25,135 nucleotides of DNA from IMG/VR virus record IMGVR_UViG_3300021424_000221, positions 1 through 25,135 of that record. One strand, 5' to 3'. The notes below the pieces were generated by a model that saw only the letters and a program-made list of their open reading frames with translations, was not told the DNA's origin and did not search any database. This document shows positions 2,391-17,265 of this stretch, piece by piece. The position numbers were made by a program, and so were the translations under genes. Every line of letters starts with the position of its first letter. Position 1 is the stretch's first letter. Origin of the DNA: a virus.

Positions 2391-4000
2391 TGTCTGGCGC
2401 AAGAATTCAGTTTAAAAGGGCTACTTCATCGTCTTGGTCAACTAATAATCCAGTTTTGTACGCAGGAGAAATCGGATATGAAACAAATACCGGTAAACTT
2501 AAAGTTGGAGATGGAACAACAGCCTGGAATTCTCTTTCATATCTAACTGCAGATATAAGTGGAGCTTATCTTAATGGTCTCGCTGACGTTACAATAACTT
2601 CAGCTGCAAATGGTGACTTCTTGCGCTGGAACGGCACCGCCTGGGTAAACGACGCCGTCAATCTCTCCGTGGATACGGTCGGCTCGTATGTTGAGTCTCT
2701 TGTCGCTGGCACTGGTGTAACCCTGAGCAATAACTCTGGGGAAGCCGCAACACCCACAATTGCTATTGGTCAGGCCGTCGGTACTGACTCTACCGTGACT
2801 TTTGCAGGTGTCAACGCACCATTGACGGGTAACGTAACGGGCAATGTCACTGGAAATTTGACGGGCAATGCAGATACCGCAACCACGCTTGCCACCTCAA
2901 GAACGATTGAGTTGACAGGCGATGTCACTGGTTCCGCCTCGTTCAATGGCTCGGCTAATGCGTCAATCACCGCAACAATCGCTGCAAACTCAGTTGCCCT
3001 TGGAACAGATACGACAGGAAATTACATCTCTGATATAACCGCTGGAACTGGGGTTACCGTTACTCACACACCAGGCGAGGGCTCTAGTGCTTCAATTGCA
3101 ATTGGCCAATCTGTAGCTACAGACGCATCTGTGCAGTTTGCCCAATTAAATACAACAGGCAACATCACTGTTGCCGGAATCCTCACTGTTAGCGGAGACT
3201 TAACAGTTAACGGGACAACAACAACTGTTAACTCAACAACGATTACCGTAGATGACCCAATCATCACGGTTGGTGGTGATACTGCTCCAGCGTCGGATGA
3301 CAACAAAGACCGTGGTGTCGAGTTTCGCTGGCACGACGGAACATCAGCGAAGGCCGGATTTTTTGGATACGACGACTCAACTGGTAAGTTTACATTTATA
3401 CCAGATGCAACAAATACATCTGAAGTTTTCTCAGGAACACTTGGAACCATTGATGTCGGCGCAGTTCATATCAATGGGTCGCAGATTGCAGCATCTGCTT
3501 TAAGCAATGGAACAACTGGTTCTGGCTCTGTTGTTCTAGCAACTAGTCCATCAATAACCAGTCCCACTATAACAACACCAACATTGACCTTATCAACTTC
3601 TTCATCATCAACAGACGCAATAATGTCTTGGGATTCTACAAATAAAAAGATTCAAGTTGGCAATGGTACAACAGTAATAGACTTCCCCTCAAGCACATTG
3701 GTTACTAACACCCAAGCTGCGAGCTACACTGTTGTTTTAACCGACAAAGATAAATTAGTTGAAGTATCAAATGCTGCTGCAAATACCTTAACTGTTCCAC
3801 CAAACTCTTCTGTTGCATTCCCAATTGGATCTCAGATAATAATACTTCAAACTGGTGCAGGGCAGACTACAATTACTGCTGGTGCTGGTGTAACAATAAA
3901 TGCTACTCCGGGACTCAAGTTAAGAGCACAATGGTCATCTGCAACGTTGATTAAACGAGCAACAAATACTTGGGTCGCAATAGGAGACCTACAAGCTTAA
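2390..4000 (+). CDS. Tail fibre protein with Mtd-like N-terminus
   Basis: A 536-residue fibre. Residues 1-50 (ARIQFKRATSS...LYAGEIGYETNTGKLKVGDGTTAWNSL) are an Mtd-N-like attachment domain. Residues of about 90-220 repeat the modules of the gene ending at 1592, including TGNVTGNVTGN and GDVTGSASFNG. A VNGTTTTVNSTTITVDD segment and a GTSAKAGFFGYDDSTGKF segment follow. The last 95 residues (from TNTQAASYTVVLTDKDKLVEV to KLRAQWSSATLIKR...TWVAIGDL) match a beta-rich C-terminal domain that recurs in phage fibres. A strong GGAGGAG sits seven bases before the ATG. Bases 2625-3100 are clearly richer in G+C than the gene ends, a sign of mosaic origin. The stop codon interlocks with that of the convergent gene at 3997. 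Confidence 0.88.
   Translation: MSGARIQFKRATSSSWSTNNPVLYAGEIGYETNTGKLKVGDGTTAWNSLSYLTADISGAYLNGLADVTITSAANGDFLRWNGTAWVNDAVNLSVDTVGSYVESLVAGTGVTLSNNSGEAATPTIAIGQAVGTDSTVTFAGVNAPLTGNVTGNVTGNLTGNADTATTLATSRTIELTGDVTGSASFNGSANASITATIAANSVALGTDTTGNYISDITAGTGVTVTHTPGEGSSASIAIGQSVATDASVQFAQLNTTGNITVAGILTVSGDLTVNGTTTTVNSTTITVDDPIITVGGDTAPASDDNKDRGVEFRWHDGTSAKAGFFGYDDSTGKFTFIPDATNTSEVFSGTLGTIDVGAVHINGSQIAASALSNGTTGSGSVVLATSPSITSPTITTPTLTLSTSSSSTDAIMSWDSTNKKIQVGNGTTVIDFPSSTLVTNTQAASYTVVLTDKDKLVEVSNAAANTLTVPPNSSVAFPIGSQIIILQTGAGQTTITAGAGVTINATPGLKLRAQWSSATLIKRATNTWVAIGDLQA
2972..3006 (+). repeat. 35-bp direct repeat, copy 2 (fibre module)
   Basis: This is the in-frame partner of 306-340, inside the second fibre gene. 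The flanks on both sides encode the same module but differ at many synonymous sites. Confidence 0.85.
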
Positions 4001-4542
4001 TCTTTCTTAATACACCAAAAAGAAGTAGAACACCAACGACGACCATTTTTTATCACTTTTACTTCATGAGGAAAATCGTCATTAGCTGGAAATGAGACGA
4101 ACAATCCAGGTTCTGGTTCTATTAAAATATTTTGATTTGGAAAATATAATTCTCCACCCTGAAAATCATCATTATAATAAAATACAGAACTTATATTTCT
4201 TTCTGGGTGACCTGCACCAGTTTTTGTTAAAACATTTTTATTTAAAGCTGGGTTGTGGTCATAGTGAACAGGTAGAAAATGTCCTGTACTCATTTCCGTT
4301 ATGTCACTCATTCCTTCGTCGTATACTTGACAATTAAAATTATCTTGAATAAGATTTTTACAATTTGAATATATTATTTTAAATATATCTTGAAATGTTT
4401 CGTTACTAGAAATGCCTGAATACACTCCAAATGGAGAATATCCAGTAGGATCTTTGGATGGACTATTATTTTTTAAATAATCTATTATCTTTTGACTATA
4501 TGAAATATCGATAACATTTCTTTTAATACAAAGATTATTCAT
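3997..4542 (-). CDS. 2OG-Fe(II) oxygenase (prolyl 4-hydroxylase type)
   Basis: A 181-residue single-domain enzyme. The iron-binding facial triad is visible as H93-Y-D95 and H159 (FPHEV). The 2-oxoglutarate-binding basic residue is R168 or R169 (GRRWCSTSFW). The core strand YYNDDFQGGELYFP (122-135) is characteristic of viral and bacterial prolyl-4-hydroxylase-like proteins. These enzymes couple oxidative decarboxylation of 2-oxoglutarate to hydroxylation of a side chain, usually in a protein. It is the last gene of a three-gene minus-strand operon, overlapping the upstream gene by 8 bases, with AAGGA before its ATG. Similar proteins at 5329-5967 and 6055-6744 are diverged paralogues. Family assignment is firm; the substrate is unknown. 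Confidence 0.88.
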   Translation of the reverse strand: MNNLCIKRNVIDISYSQKIIDYLKNNSPSKDPTGYSPFGVYSGISSNETFQDIFKIIYSNCKNLIQDNFNCQVYDEGMSDITEMSTGHFLPVHYDHNPALNKNVLTKTGAGHPERNISSVFYYNDDFQGGELYFPNQNILIEPEPGLFVSFPANDDFPHEVKVIKNGRRWCSTSFWCIKKD

Positions 4543-5326
4543 TGTGTTCCTTTTGGTTTAGATAATCAGATTCTTCTTTAAAAATCCAATTTCTTGTTAT
4601 AACTCTTTCTCCCAAAGTAAAACCTCCTTTTACCGCATGTGCCATTAGGGACAAATCTACTATTAGTAAATCTCCTTCAGACCAATGCCACCAGACCTGT
4701 AAGTCTGTGTTGTTAGCAGTTTCATTTAAATACCAATTTGTAATTTCTAAAAAAAGTTTTGAATTCTTATCTGAAGGCAATTGATTATTAACCGAATATA
4801 ATTTATCTTCTTTATTGGGTGATAGTTTTATTATGTTTTGATTTTTAAAAAAATGTTTTTGAATACATTTTCTAGCAGGAAAATTTTTGTTATGATCAAT
4901 TATGTATGATTGATTCAATAGCTCTTTCCATTCATAGGGCATTCTATTAAACAGTTCGTATGAATTAACAAATCCAGTATCACCAATTCCATAGTCGGAA
5001 GATAGATGTACCATGTTCCAAGAAGTTGCTACTTGAGAAAATGGTTTCTCGCAATGCTCTAAATGCCAGGGTATAAAAAGATCGTTTTTTGAATAAATTT
5101 TATTATTTTTTTTAAAAGTAAATGAATGATCTTCATAATCTATCGGTGCCACATAATTACATTTAATTTTTTTAGCTAACTCATTAGAAATTTTTTGCTG
5201 CTCATCTGGAGAAACGTTTGCATTTTTAAAAAAGATTAAACCATTTTTTAAAAAAAGATTATAATAATTATCTATATTATTTATAATATCTTTAAAAGAA
5301 ACATTTTCTATTGGAGAAATATTCAT
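4535..5326 (-). CDS. TauD/TfdA-like 2OG-Fe(II) dioxygenase
   Basis: A 263-residue protein with the layout of the TauD/TfdA/clavaminate-synthase group rather than the prolyl-hydroxylase group. W87-H88-L-E90-H gives the first two iron ligands, with Glu where Asp is commonest. GDTGFVNSYELFNRMP (115-130) is the usual middle motif. WHWSEGDLLIVDLSLMAHAV (213-232) carries the distal ligand H230, and R241/R245 follow for 2-oxoglutarate. TauD-type enzymes usually act on small molecules such as taurine, amino acids and amines, so this member may have a different substrate from its neighbours. No clear ribosome site is seen before the ATG, which lies two bases after the stop of the gene at 5329-5967, so translational coupling is likely. 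All motif residues are present and the gene looks intact. Confidence 0.83.
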   Translation of the reverse strand: MNISPIENVSFKDIINNIDNYYNLFLKNGLIFFKNANVSPDEQQKISNELAKKIKCNYVAPIDYEDHSFTFKKNNKIYSKNDLFIPWHLEHCEKPFSQVATSWNMVHLSSDYGIGDTGFVNSYELFNRMPYEWKELLNQSYIIDHNKNFPARKCIQKHFFKNQNIIKLSPNKEDKLYSVNNQLPSDKNSKLFLEITNWYLNETANNTDLQVWWHWSEGDLLIVDLSLMAHAVKGGFTLGERVITRNWIFKEESDYLNQKEHNE

Positions 5327-5328
5327 TA

Positions 5329-5967
5329 TTAATAAACTTTGTTTATTGTGTAAAAAGATGGAGTAGTGTATCTATATCCGCTAATTATGGTTTTTACACC
5401 ATGTAGATAATGTATATCACCAGGATGGGCAACCGCTAAACCTGGCTTGGGATTGACGACGATATCGTGTTGAGGATAATACAATTCGCCACCTTCAAAA
5501 TCATCATTATAGTAAAAAAGAGAATTAATATCATACGTTGGAAATGGATTGGGTTTTCCATCATTCGTTTGTTTATCTGCATGGGGTTGTTGTTCCATTC
5601 CAGGTTTCCACTTAATAATAACAGGTGGCCTAGTTGAAAGGTCAACTTTAAATTCTTGGTCTAAGAATAGCTTCATTTTATTTATATAAAAATCAATTAT
5701 GTTGTAAACTTCAGGATTTATTCTTTTTAAAATATCTCCACTGCATTGGCGATTTGACCAATATGCAGCATCATATATGCAGGTGCCATTTTCGTCGTAT
5801 TTATTTTCGCCAGAATCCATCCATTCATTGATATTTGGAAGAAAATTTTGAATGATTTTTATATCATTAATACTAATAAAGTTAGTAATTATTTTGATAT
5901 TTTCAGCGCTAGATCCAAAATGTCCAGGTTCAATTAAGGATTTTTCTTCGTCTGCCCTACTGTTCAT
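5329..5967 (-). CDS. 2OG-Fe(II) oxygenase (prolyl 4-hydroxylase type)
   Basis: A 212-residue protein, first gene of the minus-strand operon. Triad: H129-A-D131 and H189 (YLHGV), with R199 as the 2-oxoglutarate anchor (GYRYTTPSFY). The segment FYYNDDFEGGELYYPQHD (151-168) is nearly the same as in the gene at 3997-4542, so these two are close paralogues separated by the TauD-like gene. The first 24 residues (EEKSLIEPGHFGSS) are a hydrophilic extension. The start is preceded by CGGAAAA at about 11 bases. A TGATATACT extended -10 motif on this strand at 6024-6016 would give a leader of about 40 bases. The substrate is not known, but the prolyl-hydroxylase group mostly modifies protein side chains. 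Confidence 0.88.
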   Translation of the reverse strand: MNSRADEEKSLIEPGHFGSSAENIKIITNFISINDIKIIQNFLPNINEWMDSGENKYDENGTCIYDAAYWSNRQCSGDILKRINPEVYNIIDFYINKMKLFLDQEFKVDLSTRPPVIIKWKPGMEQQPHADKQTNDGKPNPFPTYDINSLFYYNDDFEGGELYYPQHDIVVNPKPGLAVAHPGDIHYLHGVKTIISGYRYTTPSFYTINKVY

Positions 5968-6009
5968 AGTGATATTTTCCGTTTTTGCGTTGATATATGT
6001 TACGTACTA

Positions 6010-6024
6010 TGATATAGTATATCA
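6010..6024. promoter_or_regulatory. Palindromic bidirectional promoter
   Basis: TGATATAGTATATCA is a perfect palindrome around a central G, in the 87-base divergent gap. Read on the plus strand it gives an extended -10, TGATATAGT. Read on the minus strand it gives TGATATACT. On the plus side a TTGATA at 5990-5995 sits 17 bases before TATAGT (6013-6018), a good -35 spacing. The predicted starts would serve 6055-6744 rightward and 5967-3997 leftward. Overlap of the two elements implies that polymerase can use only one direction at a time. Confidence 0.6.
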
Positions 6025-6054
6025 CAAAAGCATATTAACGAATTGCAGAGGAAC

Positions 6055-6744
6055 ATGGAAATATATAATGTAGAAGACCCAAAATTTGGAATCATTTTGT
6101 ACAGAAAAGCTGTATCTACTGATTTAAATATTCCAGAAAGATTGGAAACTTGTCTAAAAGACAGTTCTCACGAATACTTTAAGTGGAACGAGGCAACAGT
6201 TGGATACAAAGAAAGTATGCCAGATTATAGAGATTGTCTTGACCTTAAAGTGAGCTCAGCGCACTGGCAGGTGCTCCCAGAGGAATTGTCAGAAATTAAA
6301 AATATATATGAAGATACAGAATCTATTTTAAGAAGCTGTTTATCAGATTATGAAAGCAGATATAACTTTAAAATGGAGTTTATGGAAGCAATAAACTTCG
6401 TGAAGTATAATCCAGGTCAGCATTTTGCTGTCCATACAGACCATGGATTTTCCTACAACTGTACCCTGTCTTCAATAGTATATTTTAATGACGATTATGA
6501 AGGTGGAGAGTTATGGTTTCCATATCTTGAAATAAATTTCAAACCACAAAAAGGTGATGTAATTTTCTTCCCTTCAACCTATATTTATGCGCATGGCGCT
6601 ATGCCTGTTACAGATGGGATCAAGTATTCAGCTGTAACAATGTTTGATTATAAGGATAATAATTTACAATATAATCAAATAGCAAATAAATTTAAAGAAG
6701 AAAAAGAAGAAAATGGAACAAAACTCAGAAGAATCAATAGTTGA
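6055..6744 (+). CDS. 2OG-Fe(II) oxygenase (prolyl 4-hydroxylase type)
   Basis: A 229-residue enzyme. Triad: H127-T-D129 and H180 (YAHGA). The 2-oxoglutarate contact is Lys, K190 (GIKYSAVTMF), as in true prolyl 4-hydroxylases. The core strand VYFNDDYEGGELWFP (142-156) is conserved. I chose the ATG at 6055 because AGAGG lies just before it (6047-6051). An upstream in-frame TTG at 6043 would add only four residues and lose that site. It is the first gene of the rightward operon, about 30 bases from the predicted transcript start. Its 3' end overlaps the peroxidase-like gene by 32 bases. The C-terminal 25 residues are a charged Lys/Glu-rich tail, probably flexible. Confidence 0.87.
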   Translation: MEIYNVEDPKFGIILYRKAVSTDLNIPERLETCLKDSSHEYFKWNEATVGYKESMPDYRDCLDLKVSSAHWQVLPEELSEIKNIYEDTESILRSCLSDYESRYNFKMEFMEAINFVKYNPGQHFAVHTDHGFSYNCTLSSIVYFNDDYEGGELWFPYLEINFKPQKGDVIFFPSTYIYAHGAMPVTDGIKYSAVTMFDYKDNNLQYNQIANKFKEEKEENGTKLRRINS

Positions 6745-7369
6745 GCAAGCCGAAACTAATATATATACTATTGACCTTAATTCAATAGACGGTAAAAAAA
6801 ATATTCTTCATGAATTAAAGGGAAAAGTAACAATGATAGTCAATGTTACTGGAGAATGTGCAAATTCAGCACAGTATCCCATTATTCAAAATCTCTATAA
6901 TGAGTATAGGGATCAGGGGTTTGAAGTTCTAGCAATTCCAAGTATTGATTTTTGTCAAGACGCCTATGGAGAATTTGCTGATTCAAACACAAGTGCAGAA
7001 AACATGAGAGATCATATGAAAGTATTGTATGATACGGATTTACCATTTTCTGAAATGGTAAATATATTAAATGAAAATTGTAAATTAAGTTATTATGAAG
7101 TTAGCGGAAAACAACATGCACTATATGAACAATTTCAAAAGAATAGAGACCCAGTTCATGGAAACTTTGAAAAATTTATTGTTTCTAGAGACGGTCAAAG
7201 ATATGTAAGATTTTGCAATTCTGATTTATTAGATTTGGCATTTAATAGTGGTAATAGGCAAACTAATTCTGAACAAGCATTAAATAATATAAAAAAAACC
7301 ATAGAAAAATTATTAAGTGAAAGCTATAATGAAAGTAACATTAACGAAAACTCATCAGAATCCGCCTAG
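6713..7369 (+). CDS. Glutathione-peroxidase-fold protein, Cys kept, Gln/Trp lost
   Basis: A 218-residue protein. Residues 17-85 match the start of the glutathione peroxidase fold: KGKVTMIVNVTGECANSAQY (37-56), then LYNEYRDQGFEVLAIP. C49 falls at the peroxidatic Cys position of the VNVASKCG motif. The second hallmark, FPCNQFG, is replaced by IPSIDFC (75-81), so the catalytic Gln is missing. The third hallmark, WNF.KF, is HGNFEKF (149-155), so the Asn (N151) is kept and the Trp is not. The tail (from about 170) is Asn/Ser/Glu-rich. It may still reduce peroxides or disulfides through C49, or may serve as a binding scaffold. The start overlaps the upstream oxygenase by 32 bases. Compare the complementary paralogue at 10838-11452. 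Confidence 0.72.
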   Translation: MEQNSEESIVEQAETNIYTIDLNSIDGKKNILHELKGKVTMIVNVTGECANSAQYPIIQNLYNEYRDQGFEVLAIPSIDFCQDAYGEFADSNTSAENMRDHMKVLYDTDLPFSEMVNILNENCKLSYYEVSGKQHALYEQFQKNRDPVHGNFEKFIVSRDGQRYVRFCNSDLLDLAFNSGNRQTNSEQALNNIKKTIEKLLSESYNESNINENSSESA

Positions 7370-8027: not shown

Positions 8028-8029
8028 GA

Positions 8030-8057
8030 TTGATTGTATTCATTTTAGCAGTACTAT
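8030..8057 (+). promoter_or_regulatory. Possible promoter before the small paralogue pair
   Basis: In the 64-base gap after the DUF6065 gene, TTGATT (8030-8035) and TACTAT (8052-8057) are 16 bases apart. A start near 8065 would give a short leader to the ATG at 8092. This rests on consensus similarity in an A+T-rich region and is weak. Confidence 0.3.
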
Positions 8058-8091
8058 AGCTAAGATCAGAGTAGAAAAGAGATATTAATAA

Positions 8092-8349: not shown

Positions 8350-8350
8350 A

Positions 8351-8587: not shown

Positions 8588-8606
8588 AAGGAAGATTAAA
8601 TTTTCA

Positions 8607-9818
8607 ATGATTTATAAAAATGTAGAAAATTACGATCCATCGCTATATGCATGTTATGCCATAACTGATATTAAAGAAGATTTTGGCATATATACAGTTC
8701 ATTCAAGTGGTCTAAAAGAGTTATTTCATTATGATTTATATGAAATTGAAGATCATGTTCTAATAGCCTTTACAAAAATGTTTTTTTTCAAAACTGAATT
8801 TGTTTATAGAATTAAATCAGAAAATTATTCACAAGATATAAACGCTGAAACATTTGAGTCACTTGAGGATATTCTAAGTGGAGATTACGATAAAGAGTCT
8901 CACACTTTTATACTTCACAACTCCGTTGCTAATGTATCAGAAGATGAACATGGTGAATGGTTTGGGTCAGCCATAGATCCAAAGAGAAGATGTGATTTGA
9001 TCGATGATAACTATGCATCTATGCCGTTCGCAGATGCTAATAAAGAAGGTGCACCAGATATTGTAGATAGAGATTATCTTGGAAATGACGGCGTACTTGG
9101 TTGGCAGTTGGTTTTAGCATCAATGTCTAACCTTTATATTGCAAAATTAACACATGGATCAATTACTGATAGGGCGTATAAAGATTGGCCAGGTAGAGTT
9201 TTTATGTCTCAGACTTTCCCACATATTTTAAAAATGGCATATCAATGGTCTATCTTGGCGGAAGATCCATGGAATTCAAATGACACAATTGCAATAAAAT
9301 GCAAAAAAGCATTTCAAGATTGGGATATTCCATCAGATGCAATACAAGAATTAATTGATTCTCAGCCAAGTACTGTATTAGAGCATTATTTTAATGGAAA
9401 TGAAGATCCTAGACAGTCAATAGTTGAGCCAGCTGAGCTTGGTTCAAAATTCAAAAAATGGTTTATGTTAAACATAAGATACAGAACATTATCTTCATTG
9501 TTAGAAAATTTTCCTCTACCAATATCTATTCCACAATCAATTATCGATAAAGAAAAGGAATTTTTTGAATCTAAGATATATGAATTTGCAGTAAATAACT
9601 CACTAGATTTAGAAACAGTTTCAAGTGTTGATATATTGGATATGATATACAATTCATCTGACTATTTAGACGATAGAAGAAAAAACAATACTATAGAAGA
9701 TATTGTTCTTAAATATTTTTCTAGAACAGAAAAAAAATCAGTTAAAAATTATTTGAATCAAATTATTCAACCAATGAATTTTTCTGAGCAAGAATCTTCA
9801 GAAGAAGAAGATCAGTAA
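8607..9818 (+). CDS. Unknown 403-residue protein
   Basis: I do not recognise a family. The N-terminal 130 residues look like a mixed alpha/beta domain rich in aromatic and acidic residues. The middle section (about 160-250) contains GVLGWQLVLASMSNLYIAK, then PGRVFMSQTFPH and many Trp. The C-terminal third is helical and charged, ending in the acidic tail SEQESSEEEDQ. There is no clear membrane segment and no visible nucleotide-binding motif. An H-Y-D at 41-43 is not accompanied by the other oxygenase residues, so I do not call it an oxygenase. AAGGAAG lies about 13 bases before the ATG. It is in line with the oxygenase genes and 16 bases from the next one. It could be a recruitment or scaffold factor of the island. 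Confidence 0.65.
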   Translation: MIYKNVENYDPSLYACYAITDIKEDFGIYTVHSSGLKELFHYDLYEIEDHVLIAFTKMFFFKTEFVYRIKSENYSQDINAETFESLEDILSGDYDKESHTFILHNSVANVSEDEHGEWFGSAIDPKRRCDLIDDNYASMPFADANKEGAPDIVDRDYLGNDGVLGWQLVLASMSNLYIAKLTHGSITDRAYKDWPGRVFMSQTFPHILKMAYQWSILAEDPWNSNDTIAIKCKKAFQDWDIPSDAIQELIDSQPSTVLEHYFNGNEDPRQSIVEPAELGSKFKKWFMLNIRYRTLSSLLENFPLPISIPQSIIDKEKEFFESKIYEFAVNNSLDLETVSSVDILDMIYNSSDYLDDRRKNNTIEDIVLKYFSRTEKKSVKNYLNQIIQPMNFSEQESSEEEDQ

Positions 9819-9834
9819 AATAATTTCAATTTAC

Positions 9835-10506
9835 ATGTTGATAAAAGACAATTGTTTAGATCAAGATACATATGAGGAAGTAATTTCTGACAATCTTTTT
9901 TTTCCCGAGATAATGAATTATGGAGAAAAAATAGCAGAACATCTAAATTCATATCATGATGAAAAAAGCGACTGCTTTGCCCCATACATGTTTTGGGATG
10001 GCTGGTGGAGAACTCCAGCTAATACTTTAAAGAAAAAAGTTATCCAATCTTTATGGAAAGATCTAATGATTTGGGATCTAAATGATATTTTGGGATTTGA
10101 ATATTGGACAAGAACTTATCTTCCAGGACAATATTTAGACATTCATGTAGATGAAGATACATTTCTTTACGCAGAATCAAAAATTTTTAAAGGACCAATA
10201 TATGGTTGTGTTTTTTATGGCAAAGAAAATGAAGATGGTGGATTTTTAGAAATTCATAAAAAAACATTAGAAGATGGCAAAAAAAATATACTAGAAAAAA
10301 AATATATTAAAAAATATATATCTTTAAAAAAAGATAGAGAAAAAATAGCCTACAAAGGAAATAGAGCTATTTTTTTTGATGCCGGTCATGTATTACACAA
10401 TACAGTTGGGTCAAAGTCTGGAATAAGACAAGTGCTTGTTGTTAATCTTTGGCATAAGGATAATCCACCTCTAGCATTATCTAATGGAAGTTTCTATTAC
10501 GAATAG
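9835..10506 (+). CDS. 2OG-Fe(II) oxygenase, divergent
   Basis: A 223-residue protein. H104-V-D106 (YLDIHVDED) and the distal H188 (GHVLHNT; H185 is also possible) form the iron site, with R198 (GIRQVLVVNLW) for 2-oxoglutarate. It lacks the YFNDDY..GGEL block of the other members, having CVFYGKENEDGGFLEI instead. It also has an additional Lys-rich insert (about 149-170) between the strands. It is therefore a separate lineage in the island and may have a distinct substrate. It begins with a short divergent N-terminus (MLIKDNCLDQDTYEEV). The gene is intact and complete. Confidence 0.8.
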   Translation: MLIKDNCLDQDTYEEVISDNLFFPEIMNYGEKIAEHLNSYHDEKSDCFAPYMFWDGWWRTPANTLKKKVIQSLWKDLMIWDLNDILGFEYWTRTYLPGQYLDIHVDEDTFLYAESKIFKGPIYGCVFYGKENEDGGFLEIHKKTLEDGKKNILEKKYIKKYISLKKDREKIAYKGNRAIFFDAGHVLHNTVGSKSGIRQVLVVNLWHKDNPPLALSNGSFYYE

Positions 10507-10513
10507 GACTTTG

Positions 10514-10522
10514 TGATATAAT
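10514..10522 (+). promoter_or_regulatory. Extended -10 promoter, probably leaderless
   Basis: TGATATAAT is a perfect extended -10 (TG-n-TATAAT) ending eight bases before the ATG at 10530. Transcription normally starts about seven bases after the -10, that is at or next to the A of this ATG. No Shine-Dalgarno sequence is present, which fits a leaderless message. I see no good -35 box. Confidence 0.5.
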
Positions 10523-10529
10523 TATATCT

Positions 10530-10838
10530 ATGGATGAATATAATAAAAATTTTTTAGGTAAATGGAATCTTAAAATAGATACACCATTTGGAGAAGAAGA
10601 ATGTTATTTTGATATATCTATATTAGATAATATAGCTCATTATAAAATATATAATGAAAAAGGCTTTGTTAATCTTCAGCAAAAAAATAACACAAAAAAT
10701 TTCATAATGCTGGTTGGAAAAACTGAATTCCCCATACCTTGTACATTGACCATGAACCTATCGTTGGATGATGATAATCTTTTTGGTCAAATAAAAGTTG
10801 ACAATTATTTACAAGTAAATTTTGTTGGAGAAAAATAA
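10530..10838 (+). CDS. Small beta-rich protein, hypothetical
   Basis: A 102-residue protein starting MDEYNKNFLGKWNLKIDTPFG and ending VDNYLQVNFVGEK. The pattern of a G-x-W-x-L-x-I-x-TP-x-G start, alternating beta strands and a final N-L-FGQIKV...F-x-G segment resembles small lipocalin-like beta-barrel proteins of unknown role. I cannot name a family with certainty. It has no signal peptide. Its stop overlaps the ATG of the next gene by one base (TAATG), so it is coupled with the peroxidase-like protein. The start lies directly after an extended -10 and has no ribosome site. Confidence 0.6.
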   Translation: MDEYNKNFLGKWNLKIDTPFGEEECYFDISILDNIAHYKIYNEKGFVNLQQKNNTKNFIMLVGKTEFPIPCTLTMNLSLDDDNLFGQIKVDNYLQVNFVGEK

Positions 10839-11452
10839 TGTCTGTTTATGATATACAAATAAATTCTATTACTGGTGAAAATAATTATCTATCTAATTTT
10901 CGTGGTAAAATTACTTTAATGGTCAATATATCTAGTAAGTATGGATATAGTCCACAATGCTCAAAGTTTTGGTCCTACGCAAGAACATGTAGACAATTAT
11001 GGCAACTACAACACGTACATGAAGAATTTAAAGACAGAGGCTTTTCTGTATTGGGATTTCCATGTAACCAATTTGGCTTTATGGAACCAGGAACTAATGA
11101 AGAAATTGATAATTTTATAAAAGATAATTATTCATTTGTTACTTTTCCAATTCTAGAAAAAGTTGAAGTAAATGGAAAAAATGAGCACCCATTATTTTCA
11201 GCCTTAAAAGGTTATGAAAAAAGAGCATATTCCGATAGTAAAGCAGACGCTTCTGATCAAGCAATAATGGGGCAAAATTTAGCAGGGCAAGCTATAGCTA
11301 GGATATCTCATAATTATGAAAAGTTCTTAGTAAGTAGAGATGGCATTATGATGTCTAGATTCAATTGGCAAGATATGCCTCTAGATACAATTCCCAGAAT
11401 TCAAGGTGCAGGATGGACAGTAAGAGAAGCAATAGATGAGGTCTTAGGATAA
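10838..11452 (+). CDS. Glutathione-peroxidase-fold protein lacking the peroxidatic Cys
   Basis: A 204-residue protein of the glutathione peroxidase family. Visible blocks are FRGKITLMVNISSKYGYSPQ (21-40), RGFSVLGFPCNQFGFMEPG (67-85), FPILEKVEVNGKNEHPLF (103-120) and NYEKFLVSRDG (159-169). The peroxidatic Cys is replaced by Tyr (Y35, TAT). The resolving Cys of the two-Cys members is Ile (I94). The Gln (Q78) and the Asn (N159) of the active site are kept, and the Trp is His. About 13 extra residues with two Cys (C41, C51) follow the active-site loop. Classical peroxidase activity is therefore unlikely. It is in one transcription unit with the oxygenases, with one-base overlaps on both sides. 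Confidence 0.78.
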   Translation: MSVYDIQINSITGENNYLSNFRGKITLMVNISSKYGYSPQCSKFWSYARTCRQLWQLQHVHEEFKDRGFSVLGFPCNQFGFMEPGTNEEIDNFIKDNYSFVTFPILEKVEVNGKNEHPLFSALKGYEKRAYSDSKADASDQAIMGQNLAGQAIARISHNYEKFLVSRDGIMMSRFNWQDMPLDTIPRIQGAGWTVREAIDEVLG

Positions 11453-12570
11453 TGGAAGATAACAAAGAATTCTTCTTAAGAGATGAGTCTAGAATGAGTT
11501 CAGAAGCATATCCAGTGTCTCCAGAGTTTGATAAAAATGTTATCAATGAAATAGCTAAGCTTGAGACAGAAGAACTTGCGCCAGGTATCATAGTTGTAAA
11601 AAACGCCTTTGAAATTGATCAAAATCTTATTCTGAGCCACATAGACGAAAGAGCACAAAAGGCCCATGAATCCAGATGGAATTACAAAGAAATAGATGGT
11701 GTAACTTATGGAATTAACGAAGATGGTTTTAGGTATCGAATGGAAGATGTTCCAGCAGCACCAGTTAGAATACTTGATCCTGTAAATCCAAATACAAAAG
11801 AGAAAATAAAAAATTTCTTTATCTATTTAGAAGATCAAATATACAAAAGTCTTATTAAATATATAGACTACTATCCTTTGATGATAGGTTCAATTTGGTG
11901 GAAAACTAGAGGTCATATTCTTAGATATGGTGATGGTGGAATATTGGGTTGTCACGCAGATAACGACACAAACTATAAGGTTACTAAAGGTATTAGATAT
12001 ATGCCTAAGGGGATGGTTGCCTCTCGTCAAACATGTGGTGCATTAATTTATTTAAACGATTGTGTTGACTCAGAGGAAGAATTAAATGGAAAGAATTTTA
12101 CTGGTGGAAATTTAAGATTTGTACACTTAAAAATTTCTTATAAACCAAAAAAGGGAGATATAATATTTTTTCCAACAAATTATGTTGCAGCTCATGACGT
12201 AGAAAGAATGGGAAAAGGAGTTAGATATTCCTATTTAACCTTTTTTGGACAAGGATCTTCAGACCAATCGTGTAATATAGTTATCACTGAGCCAAAAGAG
12301 AGTTTTGAATGGTGCCCACCAGTTTGGTTGAACAATATTTATGATGATTATGAAATGTATTGTAGAACAGAATATTCTAGATGGGAGACTAAAGCTGAAC
12401 AATTTGGTCTAGAAGCAGGATGGAATCCAGTGTATCAGGGTAGGGAGGTTACTCAATATGGTCAAAGTCACGATACAATTACTTTTGAAGATAATGATTT
12501 AATGAATAAAGAACCCCAAGCTGTTGATCTTCCAGAAGGACCATGTGGAACAGAACCAAAATTGGTGTAA
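11452..12570 (+). CDS. 2OG-Fe(II) oxygenase, tandem paralogue 1
   Basis: A 372-residue protein, first and longest of four tandem paralogues. Common layout: an APGIIVVKNAF segment (43-53), a helical part with SIWWKTRGHILRYGDGG (147-163), the iron site H168-A-D170 and H248 (AAHDV), and R258 (GVRYSYLTFFGQGS). LIYLNDCVD and FTGGNLRF form the central strands, and YKPKKGDIIFFPTNY leads to the distal His. It has a 40-residue N-terminal extension and a 90-residue C-terminal extension (from about 280) that its paralogues lack or shorten. The start overlaps the previous stop by one base. The prolyl-hydroxylase-like core suggests a peptide or protein substrate. Confidence 0.86.
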   Translation: MEDNKEFFLRDESRMSSEAYPVSPEFDKNVINEIAKLETEELAPGIIVVKNAFEIDQNLILSHIDERAQKAHESRWNYKEIDGVTYGINEDGFRYRMEDVPAAPVRILDPVNPNTKEKIKNFFIYLEDQIYKSLIKYIDYYPLMIGSIWWKTRGHILRYGDGGILGCHADNDTNYKVTKGIRYMPKGMVASRQTCGALIYLNDCVDSEEELNGKNFTGGNLRFVHLKISYKPKKGDIIFFPTNYVAAHDVERMGKGVRYSYLTFFGQGSSDQSCNIVITEPKESFEWCPPVWLNNIYDDYEMYCRTEYSRWETKAEQFGLEAGWNPVYQGREVTQYGQSHDTITFEDNDLMNKEPQAVDLPEGPCGTEPKLV

Positions 12571-12576
12571 AATTAT

Positions 12577-13512
12577 ATGTTTGATGTTAAAGAAGATAAT
12601 ATAGAAAAACACGACATGGGAATCATTCTGTTTAAGAATGTTATACCAATGGAAGATTATTCTTTTATAATAGATTTTGCAGCCTCACTAAGACAAACAG
12701 CGCTTGAGCAAGATTTTACTTACATAAAAGATGAAGATGAAAATCCTCTGTATGCAATAAACAGAAGCGGTCATAGATATTCATTAGAGGACATTAACAT
12801 ATCGTGCAACCACATAATGAATTTTCTTGAAGATAAAACATTAGATAGTAAATATTTTAAATTTTTTAAGATATGTGAAGAAGTTTTGTACAACTGTATG
12901 TTGAGATATGTGGAATTTTTTCCAATGATGATCCCATGTTTGTGGTGGAGAACTCAGGGCCATATAGTTGGATATGGCCCTGGCGCAAAGTTTGGTATAC
13001 ATTGTGATAATGATGTTAATTATCAGCCAGGAGCAGAACCAGATCAGCAACTTGCTATCAGAAATGTTCTTGGTGGTTTAATTTATTTTAATAATTCTGT
13101 TGAATCTGTTGAACTAATCAAAAATAATTATGATTACGTTGGTGGCGAAATATACTTTCCTTATGCAGACTATAAATATTCTCCAAAAGCTGGAGATGTT
13201 CTTATGTTTCCTTCTAATTATTTGGGCACACACAGAGTGCTTGAATGTCAACATGGAGAAAGATATGCATATGTTGGATATTTTGCGCAAGGATCAAACG
13301 ATGAAAAAGTCGGAGTAAATATAAGGCAGCCTTCTGATGTAATAGATAGTGGTCAAGTCTGGATGCCATCCATAATGGATGATTATATTGACCATCTTAA
13401 AAAAAGAAATATTGATATATACTCAGAAAAAAATACGTATTTAACTGAAGCAGTTAAAAGACCCATGACAAGTCATGATACCAATAGGGAAATTATAAAA
13501 AATGTTATTTAA
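12577..13512 (+). CDS. 2OG-Fe(II) oxygenase, tandem paralogue 2
   Basis: A 311-residue paralogue of the previous gene. GIILFKNVIP (15-24), CLWWRTQGHIVGYGPG (121-136), the iron ligands H142-C-D144 and H219 (GTHRV), and R229 (GERYAYVGYFAQGS) are in the same order. Between them lie LIYFNNSVES and YVGGEIYFP. It starts six bases after the stop of paralogue 1 and its end overlaps paralogue 3 by 11 bases. All catalytic residues are present. No strong ribosome site is visible, so translation may depend on coupling. Confidence 0.87.
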   Translation: MFDVKEDNIEKHDMGIILFKNVIPMEDYSFIIDFAASLRQTALEQDFTYIKDEDENPLYAINRSGHRYSLEDINISCNHIMNFLEDKTLDSKYFKFFKICEEVLYNCMLRYVEFFPMMIPCLWWRTQGHIVGYGPGAKFGIHCDNDVNYQPGAEPDQQLAIRNVLGGLIYFNNSVESVELIKNNYDYVGGEIYFPYADYKYSPKAGDVLMFPSNYLGTHRVLECQHGERYAYVGYFAQGSNDEKVGVNIRQPSDVIDSGQVWMPSIMDDYIDHLKKRNIDIYSEKNTYLTEAVKRPMTSHDTNREIIKNVI

Positions 13513-14383
13513 TAAAGTTGATCCTAAAAATCTTGGTGGTGGAGTAGTTCTTTTTGAAAACTGTATTCAATTAGACTGGGATTATTTAATTAAAAAATCA
13601 GATCAATTAATCCAAGAGGAATGGTCTGATATGTATAGCCCTGGAATAGATCCAGAAACTGGTGAAGAAATATATGTTAATAAAAGTGGTTACTTCTTCA
13701 ATAAAACAAGTATAGACTTAATGCCAAAGAGAGCTAGTTCAATACATTATAAAGATGACTCAAATGTAAAAGAAATTCTAAACTTTTTAGAACAATGTAA
13801 AGATAAGTGCCTCCTACAATATCTGGAAATTTTTCCTCTAGCGTATAAATGTATTTGGTGGAAAGTAAAAGGTCATATATTGCAGTATCCAAAAAATGTG
13901 TATCTTGGTTCTCATTCTGATATAAGCGCAGACTATATATATGGAATATTAGAACCAAAAGATCAATTAGCTTTAAGAAATGTCCTCACTAGTTTAGTCT
14001 ATTTCAATGATTCTGTTGATAACGAAGAGGATTTAAATAGTCAAAATTATACTGGTGGTCATCATTACTTTAATTACTTAAATATAGATTATTCTCCTAA
14101 AAAGGGAGATATAATAATGTTTCCATCGAATTATATGGCAGCTCATGAAGTGAAACCAGTTACCAATGGGTTCAGATATAGTTATCTAGGTTGGTATAGT
14201 CAAGGAACTCCAAATCCAGCAGTGCACGAATATGTTGCAGACCCCGTTACCGAACCAGAGTTGGCAGAAAAGGCGACTAACGTATATATGTCAACGCTTA
14301 GAGAGGATTTTCAGAGATACCTTAAAGAATGTGGGTATTCAGAAAACTCTGAACAATATTATATTACTAAGTCAAATTACTAA
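13502..14383 (+). CDS. 2OG-Fe(II) oxygenase, tandem paralogue 3
   Basis: A 293-residue member of the four-gene array. CIWWKVKGHILQYPKN (117-132), H138-S-D140, H215 (AAHEV) and R225 (GFRYSYLGWYSQGT) give the active site. LVYFNDSVDNEEDL is shared almost exactly with paralogue 1 (LIYLNDCVDSEEEL). Residues 47-53 are rich in Pro and Gly (PGIDPET), a short insert not seen in the others. The start overlaps the previous gene by 11 bases. The gene is intact. Confidence 0.86.
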   Translation: MLFNKVDPKNLGGGVVLFENCIQLDWDYLIKKSDQLIQEEWSDMYSPGIDPETGEEIYVNKSGYFFNKTSIDLMPKRASSIHYKDDSNVKEILNFLEQCKDKCLLQYLEIFPLAYKCIWWKVKGHILQYPKNVYLGSHSDISADYIYGILEPKDQLALRNVLTSLVYFNDSVDNEEDLNSQNYTGGHHYFNYLNIDYSPKKGDIIMFPSNYMAAHEVKPVTNGFRYSYLGWYSQGTPNPAVHEYVADPVTEPELAEKATNVYMSTLREDFQRYLKECGYSENSEQYYITKSNY

Positions 14384-14391
14384 GGAAAATT

Positions 14392-15198
14392 ATGAAGTCA
14401 AGACATATTGGAATGGGAGTTGTAATTTGCGAAGACGTTATTGATATAGATCAAGATTTTTTGTTTGAATATATAAATTGGATTCGCAAAAATCAAGAAG
14501 ATACATTTACTTACCACGAAGAAAATGGAGTAAAGTATGCAGTTAATAAAACTGGATTTAAGTTTAAATTAGAAGATGTACAACAAGCGCCCCAGAGATA
14601 TCTAGACACTAAAGGCCAAAATTTTTATACAGAAACACCAAAGGAATATATTAATTTTGTAGACAATTTAGAAAATGCAGTTTATGATGCTTTAGTAGAA
14701 TATTGCTGTTATTTCCCTGATGCAGCGACTACTTCATGGTGGAGACCAACTGGTCATATAGCTGGATATGAAAATGGTCAAAGAATAGGACCACACTGTG
14801 ACGATCAGGTACCATATGAGTGGGGTAAAGAAACGGGAAATCAAGTATCAATGCACAATAGCTCAAGTATAAATCTCTATCTTAATGACTGCGTGTCTAG
14901 CGAAAGTGAAATGACTGATTATTCTTACTTGGGTGGACAAATTCATTTTCCGAATGTTCCATATGTTTATGCACCCAAAAGTGGCAGTGTAGCAATATAT
15001 CCATCATCATACATGGGAAGGCATGAGGTTTATCCAGTAACATTTGGACAAAGATATGCATTCTTGAGCATATCTTGCTATGGAACTTCTTTTGAGCAAA
15101 AAGAGATTGTTGGACAAGAAAATCCACATAAATTTTGGATGCCAGATATAATTAAAGATGTTCATAATAAAATAAATAGTAAAGAATATAAATTGTAA
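14392..15198 (+). CDS. 2OG-Fe(II) oxygenase, tandem paralogue 4
   Basis: A 268-residue protein, the shortest of the four. GMGVVICEDVI (7-17), SWWRPTGHIAGYENGQ (115-130), H135-C-D137, H211 (GRHEV) and R221 (GQRYAFLSISCYGTS) mark the fold and active site. It is the most diverged paralogue: the strand is NLYLNDCVSSESEM and the tail is short. An AAGGA starting inside the previous stop codon sits five bases before the ATG, giving good initiation. Its 3' neighbour is the FkbM-like methyltransferase, in the same direction. Confidence 0.86.
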   Translation: MKSRHIGMGVVICEDVIDIDQDFLFEYINWIRKNQEDTFTYHEENGVKYAVNKTGFKFKLEDVQQAPQRYLDTKGQNFYTETPKEYINFVDNLENAVYDALVEYCCYFPDAATTSWWRPTGHIAGYENGQRIGPHCDDQVPYEWGKETGNQVSMHNSSSINLYLNDCVSSESEMTDYSYLGGQIHFPNVPYVYAPKSGSVAIYPSSYMGRHEVYPVTFGQRYAFLSISCYGTSFEQKEIVGQENPHKFWMPDIIKDVHNKINSKEYKL

Positions 15199-15212
15199 GG
15201 TTTGAATATTCT

Positions 15213-15794
15213 ATGTATAAAGGAAGTTCTTCTCAGGAAAAATTTGTAGTAGAAATTTTTAACGAAAAAAATAATGGTTTTTATGTTGAGCTAGGTGCTT
15301 TTGACTCTAAGTTAGGAAGCAACACATTTTACTTAGAATCAAGCTATAATTGGAGTGGAGTTTCTTTTGAAATTCTAGAAGATAGAAGAAATGAATTTAG
15401 CACAAATAGAAAAAATCCTTGTTTTGGTGACGCTTTAAGTTTCAATTATATATCTTATTTTGAAAATAATAATTTTCCAAAACAAATAGACTATTTACAA
15501 GTTGATATAGATGCAGGATATCAGCACGATGGAAGACCATTCGGTAACCACTACCTAAGTTTATTGGGATTAATATCACTTCCCCTGACTCAATATAGGT
15601 TCTCAATAATAACTTTTGAACACGATGCCAATATGTATTTCAGAAATTCTGCAATGAGGGATGCTCAAAGAGAGATATTGGATAGCTTAGGCTACGCACT
15701 GGTTGTAAGGGAAAAACACGAAGATTGGTGGGTTGACCCATCAGTATTTAGCATTAATGAATTTAGAAAATATTTAAGATGGGAAACACTCTAA
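15213..15794 (+). CDS. FkbM-type SAM-dependent methyltransferase
   Basis: A 193-residue protein. SQEKFVVEIFNEKNNGFYVELGAFDSK (about 7-33) contains the SAM-binding motif I as GFYVELGAFD. SNTFYLESSYNWSGVSFEILE follows, with E53 as the probable ribose-binding acid. IDYLQVDIDA (92-101) is the usual post-motif strand, and FSIITFEHDA follows it. FkbM-like enzymes methylate hydroxyl groups in natural products and sugars. In an oxygenase cluster, a methyl group could be placed on a newly made hydroxyl, but that is inference. Length is typical for short members of the family. AAGG is 12 bases upstream. The stop is adjacent to the next ATG. Confidence 0.75.
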   Translation: MYKGSSSQEKFVVEIFNEKNNGFYVELGAFDSKLGSNTFYLESSYNWSGVSFEILEDRRNEFSTNRKNPCFGDALSFNYISYFENNNFPKQIDYLQVDIDAGYQHDGRPFGNHYLSLLGLISLPLTQYRFSIITFEHDANMYFRNSAMRDAQREILDSLGYALVVREKHEDWWVDPSVFSINEFRKYLRWETL

Positions 15795-16322
15795 ATGTAC
15801 CCAATGATTATAGTCGACAATATTATTGAGGACAAAAAAGTAACCGAAATTCAAAACTCAATATTAAATGGTTTTTTTGAAAAAGCTCCAAATAATATTC
15901 ATTTTGAAAGTTTTGGAATAGAAAAAACATACAATGACTTTAGTTATCTTTCTACAAAAATAGAATATAATATAAACTTATATTATAAAAAACAAATATT
16001 ATTTAGTACAGGAAAATCAATAGCAAGATATACTATTGCTAATTTTATAGGAAGACATAGAGATTGGGAACCAAGCGATCCTTATGTTATAGAAAACAAA
16101 AAACCTAGAATAGATTTAGCTTCCGTTTATTATATAAATGATGATTATACTGGCGGAGAAATATGTTTTTTTAAGTCTAAGGACTCAGATAGGCCTTATT
16201 TAGAGATAAAGCCAAAAGCAGGAATGTGCGTTTTTTTTGATTCTAGCGTTTATCATGAAACAAGGCCAATAATTTCAGGAGAAAAATACTCCTATACAAC
16301 TTTTCATCAATTGGCCGATTAA
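15795..16322 (+). CDS. 2OG-Fe(II) oxygenase, short form
   Basis: A 175-residue single-domain protein. Triad: H88-R-D90 ([10 protein letters not shown]) and H154 (VYHETRP), with K164 (GEKYSYTTF) as the 2-oxoglutarate contact. The core strand [16 protein letters not shown] (111-126) is conserved. It is close to the minimal prolyl-hydroxylase-like domain, with only short flanks. It begins directly after the stop of the methyltransferase gene, so the two are probably coupled and made in comparable amounts. Lys at the basic position is shared with the genes at 6055 and 16324. Confidence 0.86.
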
Positions 16323-16323
16323 T

Positions 16324-17265
16324 ATGCTACCTTTTGACACCTCCTACACAGAGATATATCCCTATATATGCGTTTATAGCAATTTGCTTCCCGATACAAA
16401 TGAACTTGCTAAAACGATGTTCAATTCAGAGGAAGTGAGCAAGAGTGCTATATTCACTGATTGGACTGATTGGTTTATATTTGGAAAATATGCTCACACA
16501 AAAAACGAAGAAGAAATAAAAAATTTTTATATTAAAAATATAATCAATTCTAAAAATTATGATATAGAACTTCATCTAAAAGAAAAAAATCTTCTACAAA
16601 GAACTATTGAGTCTAATACAATAGCGATAACAGAATATGCATCTAGAAACAAGGTGCCACTTCCAAGCAACTGTTTTATTACAAAACCAAATATCGCTAG
16701 GTATGATATCAATGTTGATACTGGAGAGAAGAAAACAATGCAATTCCATACAGACTATGGGATTGGCGAATGGTATTGGCCAGGAGAAAAGTTTTTACTT
16801 ACATGCACAACTTACCTTAATGATGATTATGAAGATGGAGAAATTGTCTTCTTGGTAAAAAATGATATTATTTTTTATAAACCAAAAGCTGGTGACATAA
16901 TTGTTTTCCCATCCGGTTCTCCTATTTTTCCTGGAGGAGAACCATATTTCCATGCAGTTAATATGGTTAAGGGTTCAAGTAAGCTTCTTGTAAGAAACTA
17001 TCTAAAGCACCGCGTTGGTCCAACTCAAAAATGGATTGATGGTGAACTTATTCATGGTAAAGAAAAATGGTATGAAATAGCTAGAAAAAGATCGGAAACA
17101 CATAATACGGCTAGCATCTATTACGCCGATGATTTAAGTCAAGTATTTTTAAATGAAATTGATAAAAGTAGAAAAATTAGAAAACTTTGTTCAAGTTTAC
17201 TGACAGATCTATATCAAATAGATCCTTCGTCTTATGATAGAAAAGAAGATCTCAATTATGACTGA
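16324..17265 (+). CDS. 2OG-Fe(II) oxygenase, long C-terminal extension
   Basis: A 313-residue protein. H142-T-D144 (MQFHTDYG), H210 (YFHAV) and K220 ([10 protein letters not shown]) are the active-site residues. [14 protein letters not shown] and [14 protein letters not shown] are the core strands. The N-terminal 120 residues are helical and the last 80 are charged and helical, beyond the catalytic core. It is the last gene of the island: the next promoter and a virion gene follow. The start is one base after the previous stop. Intact. Confidence 0.84.

What the first reader, a model, noticed from the sequence alone, without database searches (positions are those of the whole stretch)
3997..17265. 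Island of eleven 2OG-Fe(II) oxygenases in 13 kb of phage genome
Each of the eleven genes (3997, 4535, 5329, 6055, 9835, 11452, 12577, 13502, 14392, 15795, 16324) has a readable H-x-D/E ... H ... R/K set. They include at least three types: prolyl-hydroxylase-like, TauD-like and a divergent form. All look intact and are packed in operons between fibre and neck/tail genes. Established: such enzymes hydroxylate side chains or small molecules. Inference: a multi-step modification system, most likely acting on virion proteins. So many distinct members argue for several positions or substrates rather than one reaction.
Basis: partly seen in the sequence, partly recalled or inferred. Interest (0 to 1): 0.9.

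Follow-up and report, generated by a model that had tools for sequence, protein, structure and literature searches.

The report
Phage hydroxylase island beside proline-aromatic fibre
A phage carries eleven oxygen-using enzymes beside a tail-fibre protein made of repeated aromatic-proline units, and in many phages known from environmental DNA such enzymes and such repeats occur together, which suggests that the phage chemically hydroxylates its own fibre tip.

Summary
In detail: eleven intact 2-oxoglutarate/Fe(II) oxygenase genes (ten PF13640-like, one TauD) lie in 13.3 kb, each with metal triad and 2OG-binding R/K. In the 202-kb sister contig no further one was found. Such tracts occur in many phage fibre proteins and are tightly linked to such oxygenases: 85 of 119 FPP loci hold them (315 genes) against 0 of 122 random loci. 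Among 80 loci chosen only for the neighbouring fibre domain, 59 of 60 with an aromatic-proline tract have oxygenases; without it 9 of 20, seven of these with collagen-like repeats. The most widespread enzyme models as a peptidyl prolyl hydroxylase. DUF6065, with a dUTPase-like fold, is a frequent partner, once fused to an oxygenase. Best reading: a cassette that hydroxylates prolines in fibre-tip repeats. Substrate and chemistry are inferred, not shown; some FPP contigs lack the enzymes. Extra: in 9 of 16 distinct PASTA-FPP sequences (not the window's) the tract lies in the +1 frame, switching at the same rare CGG codon, a candidate programmed frameshift.

The parts
1648..2133 (+). PASTA-like + FPP-tract protein, 161 aa; candidate substrate
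   Evidence: 18 FPP units (counted in its identical copy); weak PASTA match E 0.069, below cut-off; relatives in G002, L013, L048 and others
1909..2120 (+). 12-bp tandem array coding for (F/Y)FPP units, 17.7 copies
   Evidence: 16 exact pattern matches, 0 in shuffles
2145..2390 (+). 81-aa fibre-associated protein
   Evidence: homologues in 8 of 119 FPP loci
2390..4000 (+). fibre protein, 536 aa; its C-terminal domain is the neighbour used for the matched control
   Evidence: PHROGs tail/structural matches
3997..4542 (-). 2OG-1 oxygenase
   Evidence: PF13640 44.2 bits; triad
4535..5326 (-). TauD-type oxygenase
   Evidence: PF02668 58.4 bits; HxE..H..R; no homologue found in the G002 loci or L013
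5329..5967 (-). 2OG-3 oxygenase
   Evidence: PF13640 22 bits, below cut-off; triad; homologues in 79 of 119 FPP loci
6055..6744 (+). 2OG-4 oxygenase, most widespread member (81 of 119 FPP loci); prolyl-hydroxylase fold
   Evidence: PF13640 49 bits; model pLDDT 86.9; PDB matches
6713..7369 (+). glutathione-peroxidase-like A
   Evidence: PF00255 47.8 bits
7353..8027 (+). DUF6065 protein (ORF opens at 7317); frequent partner, dUTPase-like fold
   Evidence: PF19541 149 bits; model pLDDT 89.2
8607..9818 (+). 403-aa protein of unknown function
   Evidence: no Pfam match; homologue in 1 of 119 FPP loci
9835..10506 (+). 2OG-5 oxygenase, divergent
   Evidence: PF13640 20.3 bits, below cut-off; triad invariant in an alignment of 14
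10530..10838 (+). 102-aa protein
   Evidence: no Pfam match
10838..11452 (+). glutathione-peroxidase-like B
   Evidence: PF00255 100 bits; NCBIfam below cut-off
11452..12570 (+). 2OG-6 oxygenase
   Evidence: PF13640 40.6 bits; triad
12577..13512 (+). 2OG-7 oxygenase
   Evidence: PF13640 32.9 bits; triad
13502..14383 (+). 2OG-8 oxygenase
   Evidence: PF13640 44.9 bits; triad
14392..15198 (+). 2OG-9 oxygenase
   Evidence: PF13640 33 bits; triad
15213..15794 (+). 193-aa protein, function unknown, very conserved (dN/dS 0.03)
   Evidence: no Pfam or NCBIfam match
15795..16322 (+). 2OG-10 oxygenase
   Evidence: PF13640 47.9 bits; triad with K
16324..17265 (+). 2OG-11 oxygenase
   Evidence: PF13640 29.1 bits; triad with K

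Best explanation
The island is the enzyme half of a fibre-maturation cassette. The oxygenases, with Fe(II), O2 and 2-oxoglutarate, hydroxylate prolines (possibly also aromatic residues) in the (F/Y)FPP tract of the adjacent PASTA-FPP fibre-tip protein, or in the equivalent proline-rich repeat in relatives. Several paralogues would serve different repeat positions or successive steps. DUF6065, a dUTPase-like fold, would act as partner or scaffold, and hydroxylated tips would have altered stability or host binding. Shown: intact enzymes, the fold of one of them (a model), their conservation, the genomic linkage, and different proline-rich repeat types beside related enzymes. Inferred: that the FPP protein is in the virion, the substrate, the residue hydroxylated, the role of DUF6065 and the benefit.
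For: FPP to enzymes: a profile of island enzymes finds 2OG genes in 85 of 119 FPP loci (315 genes) and 0 of 122 random loci of equal total length; as clusters of related loci 79 of 109 against 0 of 87. Whole contigs: PF13640 in 42 of 50 FPP contigs against 1 of 46 controls. Enzymes to FPP: of 80 loci with 2OG-4 relatives 64 hold FPP, all on the same strand and upstream (median 2.25 kb); with at least 6 kb upstream held, 32 of 34; the other two carry a collagen-like fibre just upstream. Fibre-matched control: 80 loci chosen for the fibre domain alone: with an aromatic-proline tract 59 of 60 have 2OG genes, without it 9 of 20, of which 7 have collagen-like repeats and 2 are cut by the contig end; as 31 clusters 21 both, 0 tract only, 1 enzymes only, 9 neither. 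Variant repeats (FFxPPG, FSFTP) sit beside the enzymes in loci without FPP. Fold: the 2OG-4 model's best Foldseek match is PBCV-1 vCPH, then PHD2, P. putida P4H and algal P4H; VIA Z 19.6 to P. putida P4H (rmsd 2.8, 186 aligned), 19.5 to algal P4H with a Ser-Pro peptide (rmsd 2.4, 173 aligned), 17.7 to vCPH (rmsd 2.5, 160 aligned). The profile of ten island enzymes finds procollagen-proline dioxygenase first in the PDB (E 7e-13). Partner: DUF6065 in 58 of 119 FPP loci, 0 of 122 controls, one DUF6065-2OG fusion. Mobility: in G002, 7 of 10 oxygenases found are 78-90% identical (the others 51-60%) although the best match of the sheath-like protein is 35% and the neck protein 65%. Fibre architecture: of ten FPP proteins scanned one has an S74 chaperone and three have fn3 matches, one above cut-off.
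Against: No hydroxylation has been measured. 34 of 119 FPP loci show no 2OG gene by the profile; 8 of 50 FPP contigs show none, including G017 (36.8 kb) and G020 (19.0 kb). In 3 of 19 long FPP contigs (G019, G038, G051) none of the listed 2OG matches is within 15 kb of the FPP tract. Cultured cyanophages hold 9-11 scattered 2OG matches and no FPP, so phage 2OG enzymes also have other roles. The strict FPP test in the fibre set was weaker: 44 of 45 with FPP, but also 24 of 35 without, have 2OG genes; the wider detector was set after seeing the variants. The query of the reverse test came from FPP loci, and the three locus sets share some contigs. Shared ancestry is only partly removed by clustering. 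No TauD homologue in the G002 loci or L013. Only one oxygenase was modelled.
Confidence: 0.68

Rival explanations
1. Hitchhiking: the fibre region is an exchange hot spot, and oxygenase cassettes with a separate role happen to sit there beside FPP fibres.
For: Island genes look mobile; scattered 2OG genes occur in other phages; a few long contigs have FPP and 2OG genes far apart. That fibre regions are variable is recalled.
Against: Loci with the same fibre domain but no aromatic-proline or collagen-like repeat mostly lack the enzymes (7 of 9 lack them, the other 2 are cut upstream); orientation is constant and spacing short; the enzymes resemble prolyl hydroxylases and the linked repeats are proline-rich.
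Confidence: 0.12
2. The enzymes modify other virion or host proteins (capsid, sheath, EF-Tu, host receptor), and the FPP fibre is only co-inherited.
For: Many paralogues; P. putida P4H, a close structural match, was solved in complex with EF-Tu (title).
Against: Association with repeat-bearing fibres; in G002 the sheath-like protein differs much while most of the cassette is kept.
Confidence: 0.1
3. Small-molecule, lipid or surface-glycan chemistry (auxiliary metabolism), including the TauD enzyme.
For: TauD PF02668 match; a published passage suggests 2OG turnover or DNA repair roles for cyanophage enzymes (PMC3037559).
Against: Ten of eleven are PF13640-type; the profile's best PDB relatives are protein hydroxylases, although PiuC-type enzymes follow; in G001 none was found outside the island.
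Confidence: 0.06
4. Nucleic-acid modification or repair.
For: Some PHROGs matched are labelled DNA endonuclease, which looks like label carry-over; a weak Tet_JBP match for 2OG-4 (E 0.07, below cut-off).
Against: No AlkB model among the matches; P4H-like fold of 2OG-4.
Confidence: 0.03

Closest known systems
PBCV-1 viral prolyl 4-hydroxylase (vCPH) of a chlorella virus
   Same: Best Foldseek match of the 2OG-4 model (5c5t, E 3.8e-11); a viral prolyl hydroxylase for which hydroxyproline in viral proteins was reported (Eriksson 1999, seen only as a reference-list title in PMC9301287; its PAPK-type repeat substrates are recalled).
   Different: A eukaryotic virus, one such enzyme (recalled); here eleven clustered enzymes in a tailed phage, linked to an aromatic-proline fibre tract and DUF6065.
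2OG-Fe(II) oxygenases of marine cyanophages (PHROG 61; S-SSM7, P-SSM2)
   Same: Same superfamily; 11 and 9 PF13640 matches per genome; a recent paper notes similarity of phage proteins to prolyl hydroxylase EGLN3 (PMC12774648, passages).
   Different: Scattered through the genome; no FPP pattern and no DUF6065 in the four cultured phages searched; identity to 2OG-4 at most 28.6% in the 40 listed of 240 records.
Collagen-like phage fibres
   Same: Proline-rich repeats in fibres; they stand beside the same enzymes in L325 and L361, where no FPP was found.
   Different: Gly-X-Y repeats; none detected in the window. Four fibre loci with collagen-like repeats and no aromatic-proline tract have no 2OG gene.
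dUTPase fold (for DUF6065)
   Same: Fold: VIA Z 9.1, rmsd 5.3, 111 aligned; Foldseek E 3.6e-4, TMt 0.64 for the first row.
   Different: No dUTPase model among Pfam matches at E up to 1; a long C-terminal helix outside most of the aligned range; function unknown.

Membership tests
2OG-Fe(II) oxygenase superfamily (PF13640 / TauD PF02668) | 2-His-1-carboxylate triad HxD/E...H | tested here: met
   11 of 11 window genes; kept in the homologues found in G002 (10) and G005 (11)
2OG-Fe(II) oxygenase superfamily (PF13640 / TauD PF02668) | R or K that binds the 2OG carboxylate | tested here: met
   11 of 11; R in eight, K in 2OG-4, 2OG-10 and 2OG-11
2OG-Fe(II) oxygenase superfamily (PF13640 / TauD PF02668) | score above the curated Pfam cut-off | tested here: inconclusive
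   9 of 11 (8 PF13640, 1 TauD); 5329 and 9835 below
2OG-Fe(II) oxygenase superfamily (PF13640 / TauD PF02668) | double-stranded beta-helix fold | tested here: inconclusive
   supported for 2OG-4 by a model; the other ten were not modelled
Peptidyl prolyl 4-hydroxylase | closest solved relatives are peptidyl prolyl hydroxylases | tested here: met
   2OG-4 model; profile of ten enzymes
Peptidyl prolyl 4-hydroxylase | hydroxylates peptidyl proline | not testable with these tools
   needs mass spectrometry or an in vitro assay
Collagen-like fibre | Gly-X-Y repeats | tested here: not met
   none detected in the window; repeats are (F/Y)FPP
PASTA domain (N-terminal part of the FPP protein) | curated Pfam score | tested here: not met
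   13.5 bits, cut-off 23.2; homologue L090 19.2 bits
dUTPase (DUF6065) | sequence-family match | tested here: not met
   no dUTPase model listed at E up to 1
dUTPase (DUF6065) | dUTPase-like fold | tested here: met
   model: Z about 9 over 111 residues, rmsd 5.3

The most novel reading that the evidence does not exclude
Tailed phages carry a mobile maturation cassette not described before: fibre tips built of aromatic-proline repeats that work only after being heavily hydroxylated by a dedicated battery of up to eleven dioxygenases with a dUTPase-fold partner, giving the virion a hydroxyproline-rich (perhaps hydroxy-aromatic) adhesive tip; in one branch a programmed +1 frameshift at a rare CGG codon sets how many copies carry the tract.
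Probability: 0.45. Interest if true: 0.93.

Novelty: new variant of a known kind. Interest (0 to 1): 0.85.

Why it matters
2OG oxygenases are common in phages of marine bacteria (14 of 16 cyanophages in PMC3037559, passage; PMC12774648, passage), and one paper says that how viruses use prolyl 4-hydroxylase 'remains cryptic' (PMC9301287, passage). The linkage names a substrate, a partner protein and a test. If true, it would be a phage system of virion hydroxylation acting on a new class of fibre repeat, and would tie infectivity to O2, iron and 2-oxoglutarate in the host.

Tried and rejected
DNA or defence role: PADLOC gave only a generic CRISPR-associated '2OG' profile and a weak NsnC match to the 403-aa protein (ten proteins given). 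NCBIfam gave no match above its cut-off (ten proteins given). Close relatives among cultured phages: none by DNA, none for the sheath-like protein, 2OG-6, an FPP protein or DUF6065; the terminase of the near-identical contig is nearest to Moorella phage MTATph1 at 38%. Host and habitat of these contigs stay unknown; I looked up neither. T4 gp23 search: no match in 42 contigs, but no positive control rang, so it says nothing. FPP in prokaryote genomes: 18 stretches; I did not look at their neighbourhoods. Position of 2OG genes used only the 77 matches that one search listed in 19 contigs of 40 kb or more (its list was cut): 62 within 15 kb of FPP, 31.8 expected. I first took 15213-15794 for an FkbM-like methyltransferase by eye; no search supports it. 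One search supersedes, whose ORF rule missed tracts. Literature: the searches found no paper with FFPPFFPP or DUF6065, and I saw none describing this linkage in the listings; the library is limited to openly licensed PMC papers.


Full report
WHAT IS THERE. The window is one whole IMG/VR virus record of 25,135 bases. Eleven intact 2OG-Fe(II) oxygenase genes lie between 3997 and 17265. Ten match PF13640 (eight above cut-off) and one is TauD. Every one keeps HxD/E...H and an R/K ten to fifteen residues on. The same stretch holds two glutathione-peroxidase-like genes, a DUF6065 gene and five ORFs without a significant family match. Contigs with a 100% identical 2OG-7 exist (202, 80 and 71 kb). 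In the 202-kb contig all PF13640-type genes found, seven by the Pfam search and ten by a profile built here, lie in the island.

CONSERVATION. The island is largely kept in order in relatives. In G005 all eleven genes have homologues with intact triads; in the G002 loci all but TauD. dN/dS is mostly 0.05-0.21, with 2OG-1 and 2OG-10 looser. In fragment L013 several best matches are only 28-35% identical and may be paralogues. In G002 seven of ten oxygenases are 78-90% identical (three are 51-60%), although the sheath-like protein's best match is 35% and the neck protein 65%, so the cassette seems to move between divergent phages (inference).

THE MISSED NEIGHBOUR. At 1648-2133 a 161-aa protein with a PASTA-like start (weak, below cut-off) ends in 18 FPP units, (F/Y)FPP (identical copy), from a 12-bp array. 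Tracts of this kind are common in viral contigs: the scan stopped at its limit with 119 stretches, 110 with the repeat inside an ORF. In prokaryote genomes the same pattern gave 18 stretches. In 113 tracts the residue before FPP is F 1015, Y 253, H 93, W 11 and others 3 times, and proline codons vary (CCA 1701, CCG 745, CCT 490, CCC 58), so the amino acids rather than the DNA repeat seem to be kept. Ten FPP proteins scanned with Pfam showed fn3 in three (one above cut-off), an S74 chaperone in one (above cut-off), PASTA-like in two (both below), an intein-like match in one (below) and nothing in three. I read this as fibre-tip architecture.

LINKAGE TESTS. (1) FPP loci against random loci of equal total length: oxygenases in 85 of 119 (315 genes) against 0 of 122; clustered, 79 of 109 against 0 of 87. 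(2) Whole contigs with PF13640: 42 of 50 FPP contigs (69 further loci not sent) against 1 of 46 control contigs. (3) Reverse: the best 80 of at least 587 stretches with a 2OG-4 relative; FPP in 64, always upstream on the same strand; 32 of 34 where 6 kb upstream is held. The two exceptions have a collagen-like fibre just upstream. By the wider detector 61 of 80 have a tract, 4 collagen-like only, 15 neither; of 53 clusters 44 have a tract. The query alignment came from FPP loci, so this test is not wholly independent. (4) Fibre-matched: 80 loci chosen only by the fibre C-terminal domain, the best of 499. By strict FPP: 44 of 45 with FPP have 2OG genes, 24 of 35 without. Looking at five of the no-FPP loci showed variant repeats, FFxPPG and FSFTP, beside the enzymes. 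With a general aromatic-proline detector, set after that look, 59 of 60 tract loci have 2OG genes (the one miss, L404, ends at its contig end 129 bases past the match), and 9 of 20 without (7 collagen-like, 2 cut close upstream); 4 collagen-like and 7 repeat-less fibre loci have no 2OG gene. As 31 clusters: 21 both, 0 tract only, 1 enzymes only, 9 neither. Against: three long contigs whose listed 2OG matches are all far from FPP, and two FPP contigs of 19 and 36.8 kb without PF13640.

WHAT THE ENZYMES ARE LIKE. The profile of ten island enzymes finds procollagen-proline dioxygenase, bacterial P4H and prolyl 3-hydroxylase first in the PDB, then PiuC-type enzymes. 2OG-4, with triad and lysine invariant in an alignment of 29, models with pLDDT 86.9. 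Its best Foldseek match is the chlorella-virus prolyl hydroxylase vCPH, followed by PHD2 and bacterial and algal P4H. VIA gives Z 19.6 (rmsd 2.8, 186 aligned) to P. putida P4H, 19.5 (rmsd 2.4, 173 aligned) to algal P4H with a Ser-Pro peptide and 17.7 (rmsd 2.5, 160 aligned) to vCPH.

PARTNERS. Unsupervised grouping of genes in the FPP loci puts the oxygenase/DUF6065 group and the fibre group first (85 loci each). The next family (34 loci) aligns with DUF6065 (hhalign E 5e-47; 10 of its 46 members also match the DUF6065 profile). One locus fuses DUF6065 to an oxygenase (L152). DUF6065 models with pLDDT 89.2 as a dUTPase-like fold without a dUTPase family match. The two glutathione-peroxidase-like genes have homologues in 19 and 15 of 119 FPP loci and 0 of 122 controls.

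A SECOND FINDING. Among 16 distinct PASTA-to-FPP spacers in the fetched loci, 7 (the window's included) read in one frame and 9 put the tract in the +1 frame. In all 9 the switch is at the same codon, CGG after AAA or GTN, and no ATG opens the +1 frame after its last stop, though six have TTG (one also GTG) codons. CGG is the rarest arginine codon in the eight sets counted (tied with CGA in L103; 0 of 7,570 codons in window ORFs). This looks like a programmed +1 frameshift that would yield tract-less and tract-bearing forms; it was not tested further.

MECHANISM AND STATUS. Shown: intact enzymes, linkage, one modelled fold, conservation, different proline-rich repeats beside related enzymes. 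Inferred: that the FPP protein is in the virion, that the tract is the substrate, that proline is the residue, that several enzymes act on different positions or steps, and the effect on the fibre. Cultured cyanophages with many scattered oxygenases and no FPP show that phage 2OG enzymes are not all of this kind.

LITERATURE. Passages seen: 14 of 16 cyanophages carry numerous 2OG-FeII proteins, with DNA-repair and 2OG-turnover suggestions (PMC3037559); viral use of prolyl 4-hydroxylase 'remains cryptic' (PMC9301287); phage proteins resembling EGLN3 are widespread (PMC12774648). No paper in the library held FFPPFFPP or DUF6065.

Noticed in passing
L025, L101, L103, L150, L329, L332, L401, L406, L054 (not the window itself): Candidate programmed +1 frameshift at a conserved NNN-CGG codon between the PASTA-like part and the FPP tract, in 9 of 16 distinct sequences.
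   Followed up: partly
window 10838-11452: Glutathione-peroxidase-like protein in which the place of the catalytic Cys/Sec seems to hold Tyr (SKYGYSPQC; the motif is recalled); other residues there in relatives.
   Followed up: no
L041, L060, L061, L073, L092, L104, L110: Several FPP fibre proteins continue into a Hint/intein-like stretch (read by eye; Pfam intein match for L104 below cut-off).
   Followed up: no
L325 7150-7968, L361 6494-7312: Collagen-like fibre just upstream of related oxygenases and DUF6065 in loci where no FPP was found.
   Followed up: partly
L152 4769-6016: Natural fusion of DUF6065 with a 2OG oxygenase.
   Followed up: partly
L146 134-1120: 2OG-5 homologue extended by a domain that looks like the window's separate 102-aa protein (10530-10838) (by eye).
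   Followed up: no
L304, L309, L316: FPP arrays in contigs binned as bacterial MAGs, perhaps phage contigs.
   Followed up: no
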